NCBI RefSeq assembly: GCF_001078705.1
Contig: NZ_CDMW01000001.1
Coordinates: 625,106 to 689,105, forward strand
Source: Streptococcus sanguinis
Lineage (GTDB): Bacteria > Bacillota > Bacilli > Lactobacillales > Streptococcaceae
Direction of reading: 5' to 3'
DNA length: 64,000 bases
The notes below the pieces were generated by a model that worked only from the letters and a program-made list of their open reading frames with translations, was not told where the DNA came from and searched no databases. Positions 53,283 to 57,493 of the stretch are shown in pieces (position 1 is the stretch's first letter; each line of letters opens with the position of its first letter). The position numbers and the translations under genes are program-made.

Positions 53283-53639
53283 ATGTCTATTATTACACTG
53301 ACTTTGGCAAGCTTGGTTGCCTTGGAATTTTTCTATATCCTCTACCTGGAGACCATCGCTACGACTTCTGCAGCTACAGCTCGGGTTTTCGGCATTTCGC
53401 AAGAGGAGTTGGAGCGGCAGTCGGTCAATACACTTTTCAAAAACCAAGGAGTTTACAACGGGCTGATAGCTGTTTTGATCTTGATTGCGGCCTTTGTGCA
53501 GCCTAGTCCGGTTTGGCTGGGAATTTTTATGGTTTATATCATCTTGGTGGCAGCTTACGGTGCAGTAACCAGTGACCCCAAAATCCTGTTCAAGCAGGGA
53601 GGGCTGGCTATGCTGACCCTGCTTAGTTTATTTTTCTAA
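53283..53639 (+). CDS. DUF1304 membrane protein
   Basis: 118 residues with four hydrophobic segments and the family pattern LVALEFFYILYLET, VYNGLIA and AAYGAVTSDPKI. Function unknown for the family. TAGGAGAG precedes the ATG. Its own promoter; the next gene has a separate regulated promoter. Confidence 0.88.
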   Translation: MSIITLTLASLVALEFFYILYLETIATTSAATARVFGISQEELERQSVNTLFKNQGVYNGLIAVLILIAAFVQPSPVWLGIFMVYIILVAAYGAVTSDPKILFKQGGLAMLTLLSLFF

Positions 53640-53684: not shown

Positions 53685-53713
53685 TTGACTTTTTTGTTAG
53701 ACAAGTGTAGAAT
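53685..53713 (+). promoter_or_regulatory. Promoter and operator of the BlaI-type gene
   Basis: TTGACT (53685-53690), 17 bp, TAGAAT (53708-53713). GACAAGTGTA (53700-53709), one base off TACANNTGTA, overlaps spacer and -10, so repressor binding would block polymerase. Confidence 0.78.
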
Positions 53714-53754
53714 AAAAGTAGAAATAGCATTAATTTAGAAAGTGCGTGGGAACG

Positions 53755-54132
53755 ATGAAAAGATCTATTAAACGTTTGCCAGACGGGGAATTTACTATTT
53801 TAAAGGTAATTTGGCAGCTGCCTACCCCGACGACCTCTGCCCGTATCATGGAAAAGCTGGGACCAGACAATCACTGGAAGCCCCAGACTTTGCTGACAGT
53901 CTTGGCTCGCTTGACTGAAAAGGGCTTTTTAGAAAGTGTCCGTAAGGGGCGTGAAAGGCAGTATACAGCCTTGATCTCAGAAGATGAGTATCTGGAAGTT
54001 GAGGCTTCGGATTTCTTGAAGCGTCACAGCGGCCGTTCTATGGGCGGGTTTGTCAAAACACTCTTTTCTTCTAACTCCTTTTCGGAAAATGAATTGGATG
54101 AGCTGCGCAGTCTGCTCAATCAAGCAAAGTAG
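53755..54132 (+). CDS. BlaI/MecI/CopY-family repressor
   Basis: 125 residues from the ATG at 53755 (MKRSIKRLPDGEFTIL); a GTG three codons upstream is possible. The N-terminal winged helix carries the family pattern LPDGEFTILKVIWQLPTPTT, TLLTVLARLTEKGFL and GRERQYTALIS. The C-terminal dimerisation part is where BlaR1-type proteases cut family members. No Cys-rich CopY tail (CxCxxxxCxC) is present, so copper sensing is unlikely. Followed after 15 bases by the BlaR1-like gene. Predicted to repress itself and the VTC operon through TACANNTGTA sites. Confidence 0.9.
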   Translation: MKRSIKRLPDGEFTILKVIWQLPTPTTSARIMEKLGPDNHWKPQTLLTVLARLTEKGFLESVRKGRERQYTALISEDEYLEVEASDFLKRHSGRSMGGFVKTLFSSNSFSENELDELRSLLNQAK

Positions 54133-54147
54133 AATGGGGGGATAAAG

Positions 54148-55605
54148 ATGAAACAATTCATTCTTTCTTTCCTGCTGACCAGTCTTTCGACATCTATTTT
54201 GGTTCTTTTGTTAAGCTTGCTCTTTACGGCTTTTAAGACCAAGATTTCGGTCAGAGTGAAGTACTTTATTTGGTTTTTGATATTGCTGAGTTTTCTGTTT
54301 CCATTCCGTCCTCAGTTCGGCTCAGGCCTGATTCGGCTGAATACAGGATCGGTAGTTCAGACAGCAGTGACTGCCACCCAGACAGGTGGAACGCAGGGTG
54401 CCTCTCCAGCAGTTGAAAAAGCTGCCCAACCAAATCTGTGGGAGGCTTTTCTGGGCCTACCTTGGTTTGAAATTCTCTTTGCCATCTGGCTGATTGGCTT
54501 TGTCTTTAGTGTAGGAAGATACGCTTATTCTTATATTCGCTTCAGAAAGATGCTGAAGCGCTGGGGCACGGAGTTTCAGGACGAAGAAGCGATGGCTCAG
54601 CTGCGGGCTGTTCAGCAGGAGATGGGAGTTAAGGGCCAGATTCGTCTGCTCCACTATCCTATGTCCCAAAGTCCTATGCTGCTAGGTTTCAGAGATATTT
54701 TAATCGTGCTGCCAGAACTTGACTACACAGAAGAAGAGCTGCAGCTGATTTTCAAGCATGAGCTGACCCACTATAAGCATCGCGATGTTTTAATCAATCT
54801 TTTGGGGATTTTTGCCAAGAGTCTGCACTGGTTTAATCCGGTTGTCCGCTTTGCCTGCCGTGAAACCCAGGAAGCAGGAGAAATGTACTGTGACTACGAT
54901 GTTCTGAGCTGTAGAGATACAGAGTATCGGACTTTCTACGGTGAAACGATTTTGACCATGATAGACCGCAGTAAGAAGACCCCAATTGCTCTGACGACCT
55001 GCTTTTACTCTGACAAGTTTAATCTCAAGCGTCGGATTGTCGGTATTATGGATAACCGGCTGCCTAAGAGGTTTCTGTCTGCTGCCTTTGTAGTAGCAGT
55101 TCCTCTCCTTTTGCTCTTGGCTAGCTCGGTCTTTGCCTTAGAAAGCCCAGCCGCTCAACAAAGCCAACCTGTGGCGGGTCAAAAACAGCCCCAAGGACTC
55201 AGTCAGCGTCAGGCTCTAGGAGTGGTCTTGAAAGAACTGTCGCTTTCTGAAAAAGATATTAAAGATTTACAAATTTCGCGTGAGAAAGACACTTATAAGA
55301 TTCTCTTCTCTCACGGGCAAACGGCCCATGAAACCATTGTCAATGCTAAGGATGGAAAACTGGTCAAATCCAAGCAGCATACCATTGTCGAAAAGACGGT
55401 AACAGTCGAAAAAGAAGTCAGTCCATCTTCGTCAGCTGCATCAACTCCAGCTGACAACAGCGCTACTGCAGGCGCAGGGAATACGGGAGCAGCGGGCTCG
55501 ACCGGAGCTAGTACAGCGACAGTCCAGACACCTGCTCAGAACAGTTCCTCTCATACGACAGACACTGATGATCCAGATGATGATGATGACCATGATAACG
55601 ATTAA
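54148..55605 (+). CDS. BlaR1/MecR1-like M56 membrane metalloprotease sensor
   Basis: 485 residues. Membrane helices near residues 5-28, 37-55, 105-125 and 310-330 surround an M56 protease domain with HELTH (204-208) and HWFNPVV. After the last helix the outer part is not a penicillin-binding domain: it has a PepSY-like stretch (residues ~351-408), a Ser/Thr/Ala/Gly-rich linker and an acidic tail (DPDDDDDHDND). Family knowledge: signal on the outer domain activates the protease, which removes the BlaI partner. The signal here is unknown; a cation or peptide ligand would fit the acidic tail. Confidence 0.88.
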   Translation: MKQFILSFLLTSLSTSILVLLLSLLFTAFKTKISVRVKYFIWFLILLSFLFPFRPQFGSGLIRLNTGSVVQTAVTATQTGGTQGASPAVEKAAQPNLWEAFLGLPWFEILFAIWLIGFVFSVGRYAYSYIRFRKMLKRWGTEFQDEEAMAQLRAVQQEMGVKGQIRLLHYPMSQSPMLLGFRDILIVLPELDYTEEELQLIFKHELTHYKHRDVLINLLGIFAKSLHWFNPVVRFACRETQEAGEMYCDYDVLSCRDTEYRTFYGETILTMIDRSKKTPIALTTCFYSDKFNLKRRIVGIMDNRLPKRFLSAAFVVAVPLLLLLASSVFALESPAAQQSQPVAGQKQPQGLSQRQALGVVLKELSLSEKDIKDLQISREKDTYKILFSHGQTAHETIVNAKDGKLVKSKQHTIVEKTVTVEKEVSPSSSAASTPADNSATAGAGNTGAAGSTGASTATVQTPAQNSSSHTTDTDDPDDDDDHDND

Positions 55606-55612
55606 ATAAAGG

Positions 55613-55658
55613 ATTCTGCCAGTTTAAGTTTCTTAAAAGCTTAGACTGGTAGAATTTT
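55613..55658 (+). terminator. Terminator of the repressor-protease operon
   Basis: ATTCTGCCAGT pairs with ACTGGTAGAAT (one G-U), followed by TTTATTATC. Confidence 0.75.
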
Positions 55659-55799
55659 ATTATCTTCTCAAAGGGGGATTTGTCAATCCTCCAAGAGCAG
55701 TTAGTCATCAGTTTGTCTTTTATTTTAGGTCGATTTTGCTTACAGTTTGCATTTCGTCTCCTAATGCTAAAAAAACTGAAAGATTATTTATCTTTTTTC

Positions 55800-55828
55800 T
55801 TGACATTTATAAACGACAAGTGTAGAAT
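55800..55828 (+). promoter_or_regulatory. Promoter and operator of the VTC operon
   Basis: TTGACA (55800-55805), 17 bp, TAGAAT (55823-55828), with GACAAGTGTA at 55815-55824. Spacing and operator position are the same as at the repressor gene promoter. Confidence 0.8.
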
Positions 55829-55840
55829 ATAATTATAAAC

Positions 55841-55850
55841 TACATTTGTA
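55841..55850 (+). promoter_or_regulatory. TACANNTGTA operator, leader copy 1
   Basis: TACATTTGTA, perfect match to the CopY-family box, just downstream of the predicted start of transcription; followed by GAAT. Confidence 0.7.
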
Positions 55851-55918
55851 GAATGTTTTTGAAAAATACTGCTTGGAAAGGAGAAGAAAGCAAAGCTTAT
55901 CCAGACGCTTGTAGGTGC

Positions 55919-55932
55919 AGAGCGGAAGCTCT
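55919..55932 (+). other. GGAA-loop hairpin in the VTC leader
   Basis: AGAGC-GGAA-GCTCT, followed by ATTTCTTTT. A GNRA-type tetraloop hairpin, possibly a weak attenuator in the ~150-nt leader. Confidence 0.5.
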
Positions 55933-55953
55933 ATTTCTTTTAAAAACAAAAAC

Positions 55954-55963
55954 TACATTTGTA
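55954..55963 (+). promoter_or_regulatory. TACANNTGTA operator, leader copy 2
   Basis: A second TACATTTGTA with the same flanks (AAACTACATTTGTAGAAT is shared by both leader copies), ending 5 bp before the AAAGGAG of the VTC gene. Confidence 0.7.
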
Positions 55964-55982
55964 GAATTAAAGGAGAATCCAA

Positions 55983-56714
55983 ATGAAACAAAAGCAAATC
56001 CAAACAAACTTCCAACGGATCGAAACTAAGTATATTCTTGACCGAGCAATGCTAGCTCGTCTTGAAGCTGACATGAGACCTCACCTCACCGCAGATGATT
56101 ATGCGACATCAACCATTTCCAATGTATATTTTGATAATGATGAGTTCCAGATGATTCAAGATTCCATTGCCAGAAAAGGTGGTCGCGAAAAGATGCGGAT
56201 GCGCACTTATGCTGAGCAGCCAAATGATGATAGTCAAGTTTTCTTGGAAATCAAGAAGAAACGCGATGAAGTAGGTTTCAAATACCGTTTGGTTTCTAAT
56301 CCTCTCTCTGTGACCAACTATATTGTGAATGGTGTGGCAGACCATACTATTTCTGATGACCGGGTCAAGGCAGAAGTAGAACAGTTGCAGGAGCGCTATC
56401 TGGACTTGAAGCCAAAAATGGTGATTAGCTATGACCGCTACTCTATGAGAGGCTTGGAAGATAAAAAGGTACGTGTGACCGTTGATTCCAACATCCGCTA
56501 TCGAGATTACGATGTAGATTTGGCTTCAGGTCGCTATGGACTGCCCTTGCTGGAAGACGACAAGGTGATTATGGAAATCAAGGTTCCTGGTCAATATCCT
56601 CAGTGGCTGGCTGATATTCTCAACAAATACGGCCTTGAAGACCAGTCCTTCTCAAAATACGGCAAAGCCTACCTGCAAACTAAAGAAAGGCTGACTCAAA
56701 CAGTCAAGGCCTAA
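55983..56714 (+). CDS. VTC-domain protein (polyphosphate polymerase-like)
   Basis: 243 residues forming one VTC/CYTH-like tunnel domain: QRIETKYILD at the start, KGGREKMRMRTY, VFLEIKKKRDEVGFKYR, VISYDRYSMRG, VRVTVDSNIRYRD, VIMEIKVPGQYPQWL and FSKYGKAY, which supply the Lys/Arg and Glu residues expected for triphosphate binding. Eukaryotic Vtc4 makes polyphosphate from ATP; bacterial single-domain relatives are little studied. Soluble, no signal peptide. AAAGGAG lies upstream. Eleven bases separate it from the DUF4956 gene, its usual genomic partner. Confidence 0.88.
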   Translation: MKQKQIQTNFQRIETKYILDRAMLARLEADMRPHLTADDYATSTISNVYFDNDEFQMIQDSIARKGGREKMRMRTYAEQPNDDSQVFLEIKKKRDEVGFKYRLVSNPLSVTNYIVNGVADHTISDDRVKAEVEQLQERYLDLKPKMVISYDRYSMRGLEDKKVRVTVDSNIRYRDYDVDLASGRYGLPLLEDDKVIMEIKVPGQYPQWLADILNKYGLEDQSFSKYGKAYLQTKERLTQTVKA

Positions 56715-56725
56715 GGGGGTAGTCT

Positions 56726-57409
56726 ATGCTTGATCAGTTATTTAACAGTATTTACTCCTCCACGGAAGTCAAGATTAATCCTTTGGCACTGATTTTTTCA
56801 CTAGCAACTAGTGTGGTTTTAGGAATTATCTTGGCCAAGGTCTATAAGCGCCAAACGATTTATACCAAGGAATTTGTCGTCACCCTCTCCCTTTTGCCAG
56901 CTATTATTTCCATTATCATCTTCTTGGTTAATGGAAATCTGGGGACCAGTGTCGCCGTAGCAGGTACTTTTAGCTTGATTCGTTTCCGGTCGGCCGCAGG
57001 TGGCTCCAAGGAGCTCCTAGCTATCTTTATGGCGACGGCTATCGGGATTACAACAGGGATGGGATTTGTAGCATTGGGAATTGTCTTTACTCTAGCTATT
57101 TCAGGCATCTGGATGCTCTTTGAAAAGATGAGCTTTACTTCAGTCAGTCAGACCAGACGTTATGTTCAGGTTCAAGTTCCAGCTGACTTTGACTACGAAG
57201 TACTCTTTGATGCTATCTTTGAAACGGCTTGTAAATCAGCTGAACTGACCTCTCTCAAGTCGGCTGAAAAGAAGTCTATCAAGCTAGACTATGTCGTTGA
57301 CTTGAATCCTGACATGAGCGACAGAGAGCTGATTCAGCAGTTCCTGTTCTACGATAAGGTTCAGGACATTTCCCTTTCCAAAGCCGCTAAGAAGCGTAAA
57401 ACTCTCTAA
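56726..57409 (+). CDS. DUF4956 membrane protein
   Basis: 227 residues: four membrane segments in the first ~135 residues (LALIFSLATSVVLGIILA, then VTLSLLPAIISIIIFLV, and GTSVAVAGTFSLIRFRSA with a conserved polar-Gly turn) and a soluble C-terminal domain (residues ~145-227). This matches the DUF4956 family, commonly encoded next to VTC-domain proteins. Function unknown; it could export, sense or shelter the product of the VTC enzyme. AAGGGGG precedes the ATG. Confidence 0.86.
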   Translation: MLDQLFNSIYSSTEVKINPLALIFSLATSVVLGIILAKVYKRQTIYTKEFVVTLSLLPAIISIIIFLVNGNLGTSVAVAGTFSLIRFRSAAGGSKELLAIFMATAIGITTGMGFVALGIVFTLAISGIWMLFEKMSFTSVSQTRRYVQVQVPADFDYEVLFDAIFETACKSAELTSLKSAEKKSIKLDYVVDLNPDMSDRELIQQFLFYDKVQDISLSKAAKKRKTL

Positions 57410-57419
57410 GCAAAGGAAG

Positions 57420-57447
57420 ACCAGCTGCAGCTTAGCAGTTGGTTTTC
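57420..57447 (+). terminator. VTC operon terminator
   Basis: ACCAGCTGC/GCAGTTGGT (one G-U), then TTTT. Confidence 0.8.
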
Positions 57448-57493
57448 TTATTTGTATAATAAAAAGGGGATACATCATACTTACAGAAAATAC

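What the first reader, a model, noticed from the sequence alone, without database searches (positions are those of the whole stretch)
53685..57447. BlaI/BlaR1-like circuit predicted to control a VTC-DUF4956 membrane operon
The repressor gene promoter and the VTC operon promoter are built the same way: TTGAC(T/A), 17 bp, TAGAAT, with GACAAGTGTA in the same position over the -10. The VTC leader has two more sites that match TACANNTGTA exactly. The repressor is of the family that binds such boxes, and its partner protease is next to it. Together this predicts a stress-sensing circuit that induces a VTC-domain/DUF4956 pair, whose function in bacteria is unsettled. I know of no description of this link.
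Basis: partly seen in the sequence, partly recalled or inferred. Interest (0 to 1): 0.82.

Follow-up and report, generated by a model that had tools for sequence, protein, structure and literature searches.

The report
BlaI–protease switch controlling VTC operon
In Streptococcus sanguinis and some of its relatives, a gene switch built like the one that turns on penicillin resistance, but with a different outside sensor, is predicted to control a membrane operon resembling the yeast polyphosphate-making machine plus a surface lipoprotein.

Summary
Four copies of KACANNTGTAGAAT lie at 53700, 55815, 55841 and 55954 (0.01 expected). Bare TACANNTGTA is at background; the extended box carries the signal.

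The whole genome adds a third promoter with the same 26-bp double box, before a DUF3642 lipoprotein gene 134 kb away.

In 247 sampled streptococcal genomes the double box occurs in 31. All 31 are among the 35 with an ortholog of this BlaI (one broken); none of the other 212 has it. All 41 sites lie before VTC, the lipoprotein, or a PepSY-repeat gene ahead of VTC. Fetched VTC loci beside blaI have boxes in 23 of 23; of 39 inspected elsewhere, 38 have none.

The M56 protease keeps the BlaR1 zinc site but has a PepSY-like domain and acidic tail instead of a penicillin-binding sensor.

Most likely BlaI represses itself, VTC–DUF4956 and the lipoprotein, and an extracellular signal through M56 relieves it. 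No binding, induction or polyphosphate was measured; the signal is unknown. Ten searches of the held papers listed no description (and earlier).

The parts
53685..53713 (+). blaI promoter: TTGACT-N17-TAGAAT
   Evidence: same layout in the 13 other blaI loci listed, with some variation in the -35 letters
53700..53713 (+). operator box GACAAGTGTAGAAT over the -10 of the blaI promoter (predicted autoregulation)
   Evidence: exact box in 27 of 29 fetched blaI loci, one of them with a broken blaI; the other two have degenerate versions by eye
53755..54132 (+). BlaI/MecI-family repressor, 125 aa (an upstream GTG start at 53746 is possible); lacks the C-terminal Cys motif of CopY
54148..55605 (+). 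M56 membrane protease, 485 aa: HELTH zinc motif (H204, E205, H208) plus E245; PepSY-like domain about 346-410; Asp-rich tail
55611..55657 (+). terminator-like hairpin after the blaI-M56 genes
55800..55828 (+). VTC operon promoter TTGACA-N17-TAGAAT
55815..55828 (+). operator box 1 (GACAAGTGTAGAAT) over the -10 of the VTC promoter
55841..55854 (+). operator box 2 (TACATTTGTAGAAT), 26 bp from box 1; the same spacing is found before the lipoprotein
55919..55932 (+). leader hairpin followed by a T-rich stretch, between boxes 2 and 3 (possible attenuator)
55954..55967 (+). operator box 3 (TACATTTGTAGAAT) just before the VTC ribosome-binding site
   Evidence: 13 of the 16 invariant columns in an alignment of 12 leaders lie in this box and the three bases before it
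55983..56714 (+). VTC-domain protein, 243 aa, predicted polyphosphate polymerase fold
56726..57409 (+). DUF4956 membrane protein, 227 aa, 11 bp after VTC
57414..57449 (+). terminator-like hairpin after the VTC operon

Best explanation
This is a dedicated BlaI–M56 regulon. SHOWN from sequence: a BlaI-family repressor gene is followed by an M56 membrane protease gene; blaI, the VTC–DUF4956 operon and a distant DUF3642 lipoprotein gene share a promoter with a KACANNTGTAGAAT box over the -10, and the VTC and lipoprotein promoters add a second box 26 bp downstream; the double boxes occur only in sampled genomes with this BlaI. INFERRED: the BlaI dimer binds the boxes and blocks RNA polymerase. An extracellular signal is read by the PepSY-like domain and acidic tail of the M56 protein. 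The cytoplasm-facing zinc protease is then activated, directly or indirectly removes BlaI, and the boxed genes are transcribed; because blaI has its own box the response resets. The VTC protein, with DUF4956 as membrane partner, probably makes polyphosphate or a similar phosphate polymer at the membrane as part of an envelope response, together with the lipoprotein (or the PepSY-repeat protein in the S. suis group). Confidence: repressor–VTC link about 0.87; M56-dependent induction about 0.65; polyphosphate synthesis about 0.45.
For: Exact 14-mer: 5 sites in the genome, all in these promoter or leader regions. Double box: 31 of 247 sampled genomes, reversed control 0; all 31 are among the 35 with this BlaI ortholog, 0 of 212 others (Fisher 2e-35, not corrected for relatedness). 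All 41 double boxes precede VTC, the PepSY-repeat gene ahead of it, or the lipoprotein. Boxes are kept where VTC has diverged to 49-58% identity (S. minor, S. macacae, S. suis types); 13 of 16 invariant columns of 12 aligned leaders are box 3 and the three bases before it. VTC loci away from blaI: 38 of 39 without a box, including second copies in blaI genomes. The lipoprotein has a box in 22 of 22 close orthologs; 8 of 8 sampled distant relatives have none. The M56 zinc site is invariant in 26 relatives and aligns to BlaR1. PepSY-like domain: HHalign probability 96.7 to the PepSY repeats of the S. suis protein, an alpha-beta4 model, weak Foldseek matches to YpeB (5boi) and 4exr. VTC model matches yeast Vtc4, Foldseek E 4e-13.
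Against: No binding, expression or product data. The genomes share ancestry, so 31 of 35 are not independent; I would guess about five lineages. One genome without the BlaI ortholog (G126) keeps one exact box before its VTC gene. Four of the 35 lack the exact double box: G023 (first box begins TACA), G129 (variant second box), G213 (degenerate boxes) and G102 (VTC lost, one lipoprotein box). Some S. cristatus-type genomes keep blaI but have lost VTC, and most of these also part of M56. Box 3 also scores 9 of 12 as a weak promoter. Pfam does not call PepSY in the window's own M56 protein, and the Foldseek hits for that domain have E 0.056 or worse. The Asn–Phe bond cut in MecI/BlaI (recalled) is not conserved here (T102–L103 by the alignment).
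Confidence: 0.8

Rival explanations
1. CopY, the copper-sensing repressor of the same family in this genome, controls the VTC and lipoprotein boxes, so the operon is part of the copper response.
For: CopY is encoded in this genome (C1:62818) next to copA, and CopY binds TACANNTGTA-type operators (passages of PMC7253601). G126 keeps a VTC box but has only a 29%-identical family member.
Against: 206 of the 212 genomes without this BlaI have some weaker family relative at E 1e-6 (not checked one by one for being CopY), yet none of the 212 has the double box. The cop boxes here read TTACAAATGTAAAC/T and fit the published RNYKACANNTGTARNY; the regulon boxes end in TGTAGAAT and break its last position, compared by eye.
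Confidence: 0.06
2. The shared sequence is only a strong promoter (TTGACA-N17-TAGAAT); similarity at the -10 is fortuitous and BlaI regulates only itself.
For: Box 1 overlaps the -10 at each promoter, so part of its conservation is expected from promoter function. Box 3 is listed as a weak promoter, 9 of 12.
Against: Box 2 is not listed by the promoter scan and box 3 only weakly, yet both keep the same letters across species. The double box appears only in genomes with this BlaI, and 38 of 39 inspected VTC loci elsewhere have no box.
Confidence: 0.05
3. The circuit is a true beta-lactam sensor: M56 detects penicillin and VTC–DUF4956 contributes to beta-lactam tolerance.
For: Best NCBIfam model for the protease is blaR1_generic, residues 5-334, though far below its cut-off (147 against 400 bits).
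Against: Homology to BlaR1 ends at about residue 331; the rest is a 60-70-residue PepSY-like domain and a low-complexity acidic tail, with no penicillin-binding domain found. None of the boxed genes found is a beta-lactamase.
Confidence: 0.07
4. BlaI controls the operon, but VTC–DUF4956 does not make polyphosphate; the VTC fold acts on another triphosphate or phosphorylates a surface polymer.
For: Related folds in the search include putative adenylate cyclases and triphosphatases. In streptococcal Pel loci a polyphosphate-polymerase-like gene and DUF4956 sit with CotH and exopolysaccharide genes (passages of PMC7112168).
Against: Best structural matches are the Vtc4, Vtc3 and Vtc2 subunits. 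Ten charged positions aligned to Vtc4 are invariant in 12 of 12 homologs, although the last three rest on an alignment stretch that is not significant alone; that they are Vtc4 active-site positions, and that one lysine differs, is recalled.
Confidence: 0.35

Closest known systems
BlaI–BlaR1 (and MecI–MecR1) beta-lactam-inducible systems
   Same: Repressor family, operator core, adjacent M56 protease with the same zinc site, box at the repressor's own promoter
   Different: No penicillin-binding sensor found; PepSY-like domain and acidic tail instead; boxed genes are VTC–DUF4956, a lipoprotein or PepSY proteins rather than beta-lactamase or PBP2a
CopY/CopR copper repressors
   Same: Same repressor family and 10-bp operator core; NCBIfam's best hit is CopY_TcrY, below its cut-off (71.5 against 122 bits)
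   Different: No C-terminal Cys motif, no copper genes beside it, different operator flank (GAAT)
Eukaryotic VTC polyphosphate polymerase complex (Vtc4)
   Same: VTC fold and aligned charged residues
   Different: At 243 aa it has only the VTC domain, without the SPX part of the yeast proteins; a separate DUF4956 membrane protein instead; activity not shown
CotH / polyphosphate polymerase / DUF4956 accessory genes of Gram-positive Pel clusters
   Same: Streptococcal pairing of a polyphosphate-polymerase-like gene with DUF4956 (passages of PMC7112168)
   Different: That set carries CotH and DUF4832 beside pel genes; in the window VTC and DUF4956 stand alone between M56 and rpsU, under BlaI-type boxes

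Membership tests
BlaI/MecI repressor family | Penicillinase_R domain (PF03965) over cut-off | tested here: met
   88.2 bits against 22.6; aligns to MecI 1okr over residues 8-123
BlaI/MecI repressor family | Binds a TACANNTGTA-type operator in its own promoter | tested here: inconclusive
   A box is at the promoter in 27 of 29 fetched loci; binding itself not testable here
CopY copper repressor | C-terminal Cys-X-Cys metal-binding motif | tested here: not met
   No cysteines at the C-terminus of the 12 orthologs aligned; present in this genome's CopY
BlaR1/MecR1 sensor-transducer | M56 protease with HExxH and third zinc ligand | tested here: met
   H204, E205, H208 and E245 invariant in 26 sequences; aligned to BlaR1 8exp. 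Which BlaR1 residues bind zinc is recalled
BlaR1/MecR1 sensor-transducer | Extracellular penicillin-binding (transpeptidase-like) sensor domain | tested here: not met
   Homology stops at about residue 331; no such domain in Pfam or the model
PepSY domain | Pfam PepSY (PF03413) over cut-off | tested here: inconclusive
   Not called in the window protein; 23.0 against 24 bits in the S. gordonii ortholog; over cut-off in M56 relatives of Gemella and Clostridia-type records; fold and HHalign support
VTC polyphosphate polymerase | VTC domain (PF09359) and fold | tested here: met
   165 bits against 23; Foldseek to Vtc4 E 4e-13
VTC polyphosphate polymerase | Polyphosphate synthesis activity | not testable with these tools
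   Needs biochemistry

The most novel reading that the evidence does not exclude
BlaI–M56 with PepSY sensors is a separate class of envelope-sensing switch, shared by streptococci, Gemella and Peptostreptococcaceae-type bacteria, whose core targets are exported PepSY or lipoproteins. In streptococci it has captured a VTC–DUF4956 machine that makes phosphate polymer at the membrane as a counter-charge or metal buffer; the acidic tail of M56 reads free cations or cationic peptides outside the cell, closing the loop.
Probability: 0.22. Interest if true: 0.82.

Novelty: new variant of a known kind. Interest (0 to 1): 0.63.

Why it matters
BlaI–M56 pairs are known mainly as beta-lactam resistance switches. 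Here the same kind of switch has a different sensor and a regulon in which no resistance gene was found, with boxes conserved over several streptococcal lineages. It gives the bacterial VTC–DUF4956 pair, whose function is open, a genetic handle: removing one repressor gene should switch it on, so the product and phenotype become testable. It also ties a surface lipoprotein of unknown function and PepSY-repeat proteins to the same signal.

Tried and rejected
Bare TACANNTGTA as the signal: rejected, at background in the genome. CopY as the regulator: rejected on genome distribution and box flank. Promoter-only similarity: rejected because box 2 is not, and box 3 only weakly, promoter-like, yet both are conserved. 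Defence system: no PADLOC hit for the four proteins. Other exact boxes in related genomes: L149, L154, L155 and L171-L173 show no second box and no clear promoter; whether each is inside a gene was not checked. Two 13-mer sites elsewhere in this genome (C1:24667, C1:2220142) are inside long ORFs. Literature: ten searches of the held open-access library gave no paper that, from its listing, describes a BlaI–VTC or BlaI–PepSY link; DUF4956 occurs in 3 papers and DUF3642 in none. Only the top of long listings was seen, and subscription papers and preprints are not held, so this is weak evidence of absence.

Papers seen: passages only of PMC7112168, PMC10657179 and PMC7253601; all others as listings. 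Recalled, not from a call: zinc ligands of BlaR1, the Asn–Phe cleavage site of MecI/BlaI, the Vtc4 active-site residue list, 4exr being a PepSY-type protein.
Full report
OBSERVATION. The blaI-like gene is preceded by TTGACT-N17-TAGAAT with GACAAGTGTAGAAT over the -10; the VTC gene by TTGACA-N17-TAGAAT with the same 14-mer, then TACATTTGTAGAAT 26 bp downstream and again just before the ribosome-binding site. KACANNTGTAGAAT occurs 4 times in the window against 0.01 expected, and 0 of 100 shuffles reach 4. The 10-bp core alone is at background: 28 palindromic sites in the genome against 26 for the reversed control.

WHOLE GENOME. The window is C1:625106-689105 of a 2.31-Mb genome, close to named S. 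sanguinis records. The exact 14-mer occurs five times: the four above and C1:815662. The fifth is followed, again at 26 bp, by TACAAATGTAGAAA, and lies over a TTGACA-N17-TAGAAT promoter of a 156-aa lipoprotein gene, DUF3642 by Pfam. With one mismatch allowed, 22 places are found against 11 for the reversed control, so looser matches were not counted as members. Two other 13-mer matches lie inside long ORFs. The only other full-length family member is CopY, beside copA, with boxes TTACAAATGTAAAC/T; one search also lists one partial match inside an 800-aa frame, not followed.

GENUS SURVEY. In a sample of 247 streptococcal genomes the BlaI protein has intact orthologs in 34 (51-100% identity, 129 bits or more) and a broken one in G035; the next best matches fall to 59 bits. 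The double-box pattern GACANNTGTAGAATN{6,20}KACANNTGTAGAA is found in 31 genomes, 41 sites, with 0 for the reversed control. All 31 are among those 35; none of the 212 others has it (Fisher 2e-35; relatedness not corrected). The four of 35 without it are G023, G102, G129 and G213; G023 and G129 have variant double boxes, G213 only degenerate ones, and G102 keeps a single lipoprotein box. By coordinates, 20 of the 41 sites precede the lipoprotein gene and 21 the VTC gene or the PepSY-repeat gene ahead of it.

LOCI. I fetched 29 blaI loci (28 with intact blaI, and G035) of the 35; 27 have an exact box at the blaI promoter, and 23 have VTC or pieces of it in the same locus; all 23 have boxes between M56 and VTC. 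The other 6 are five S. cristatus-type loci that lost VTC and one contig end. I inspected 39 VTC loci not beside blaI, taken because they scored best, were second copies, or came from genomes with boxes elsewhere: 38 have no box (exact core and at most two differences in GAAT, in the stretch held) and one does, G126. They include this genome's own second VTC gene at C1:2264114. Of 117 VTC-bearing genomes without the BlaI ortholog, 44 have an exact box anywhere; by eye from the coordinates only G126's lies near a VTC gene. The lipoprotein has a box in 22 of 22 close orthologs (73-100% identity; 19 double, 3 single), all in the 35 genomes; 8 of 8 sampled distant relatives in other genomes have none.

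NAMES AND REACH. One scan of named genomes gave 79 loci, the best 80 of 145 relatives; I annotated 52 of the 79 (L178-L229). The blaI–M56–VTC arrangement with boxes is in records titled S. sanguinis, S. cristatus, S. sinensis, S. gordonii, S. suis, S. minor and S. macacae. Gemella, Peptostreptococcaceae and other Clostridia-type records (L200-L207, L211) have a BlaI 59-62% identical to that of S. suis beside an M56 gene, with boxes of the same type near blaI or near PepSY-repeat genes, and no VTC match at E 1e-5 in the stretch held, which is short in some. My reading is that BlaI, M56 and PepSY protein are the older core and VTC a streptococcal addition; no tree was built. A sample of 398 genomes of the class gave 10 with matches at E 1e-25 or better, 3 of them streptococci and the other 7 36-41% identical.

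THE PROTEASE. It aligns with BlaR1 over residues 9-331. H204, E205, H208 and E245 are invariant in 26 relatives. No penicillin-binding domain was found. The model (mean pLDDT 71) shows the BlaR1-like membrane and protease part, a helix plus four strands at 353-412 with pLDDT near 80, and a low-confidence tail. Foldseek finds BlaR1 first (E 7e-9), then, for the small domain, 4exr and the YpeB domain 5boi with high probability but E 0.06 and 0.17. HHalign matches 11 streptococcal domains to the three PepSY repeats of the S. suis protein (probability 96.7; shallow alignments). Distant relatives carry Pfam PepSY repeats at this place, up to six. All 16 streptococcal proteins aligned end in an acidic tail.

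THE TARGET. The VTC model (mean pLDDT 89) matches yeast Vtc4 and its paralogs best. Profile alignment places K16, R72, R74, K91, K100, R152, R164, E198, K200 and K225 on the same residues of Vtc4; the last three lie in a second stretch that is not significant alone. All ten are invariant in the 12 homologs aligned. That these are active-site positions in Vtc4 is recalled. DUF4956 follows 11 bp downstream.

MECHANISM. BlaI most likely sits on the boxes of its own, the VTC and the lipoprotein promoters and blocks them; the M56 protease, signalled from outside, relieves it. The link from BlaI to VTC rests on conserved boxes in several diverged lineages; the M56 step rests on homology to BlaR1; the signal and the product are not shown. 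The aligned position of the MecI cleavage bond is T102–L103 here (the MecI site is recalled), so the cut, if any, has different residues.

KNOWN OR NEW. The parts are known; the combination is a variant: BlaR1 architecture without the beta-lactam sensor, and boxed genes without a resistance gene among them. The published CopY operator (passages of PMC7253601) has the same core but a different flank. The pairing of a polyphosphate-polymerase-like gene with DUF4956 in streptococci is in print for Pel clusters (passages of PMC7112168). No listing in ten searches described the BlaI link.

Noticed in passing
window 55919-55932: A small hairpin followed by a T-rich stretch lies between boxes 2 and 3 of the VTC leader. 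The stem letters differ between clades while a hairpin remains, so it may be an attenuator; judged by eye, no covariation count made.
   Followed up: partly
L121 4467-4855 and L181 7522-7910: In S. sanguinis SK1 (ATCC 10556) blaI reads as two short ORFs while the boxes are kept: a natural strain probably without the repressor.
   Followed up: no
L123, L124, L126, L129, L132 (S. cristatus-type genomes): blaI and its box are kept while VTC is lost, and M56 is shortened or in pieces in four of the five; a lipoprotein box remains in all five genomes.
   Followed up: partly
L257 3998 (genome G126): A VTC gene 72% identical to that of S. macacae keeps one exact box over its -10 although no close BlaI ortholog was found in the genome: a relic, or another repressor uses it.
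   Followed up: partly
L200, L203, L207, L211 (Peptostreptococcaceae- and Bacillota-titled records): PepSY-repeat proteins, up to 7 repeats, lie beside BlaI–M56 with paired boxes of the same type; L203 and L211 have a second BlaI-like gene downstream.
   Followed up: partly
L156 2084 (genome G023): A single box over a TTGACT-N17-TAGAAT promoter stands before a gene that looks by eye like UDP-GlcNAc 2-epimerase; possible extra regulon member or chance.
   Followed up: no
own genome C1:2092319-2092795 and C1:2264114-2264800: A second DUF3642-type lipoprotein (51% identical) and a second VTC gene (41% identical). The VTC copy has no box nearby; the lipoprotein copy was not inspected.
   Followed up: partly
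window 53283-53639: A DUF1304 gene stands just before blaI in the sanguinis, cristatus and gordonii loci but was not matched in the S. suis-type or S. sinensis loci.
   Followed up: no
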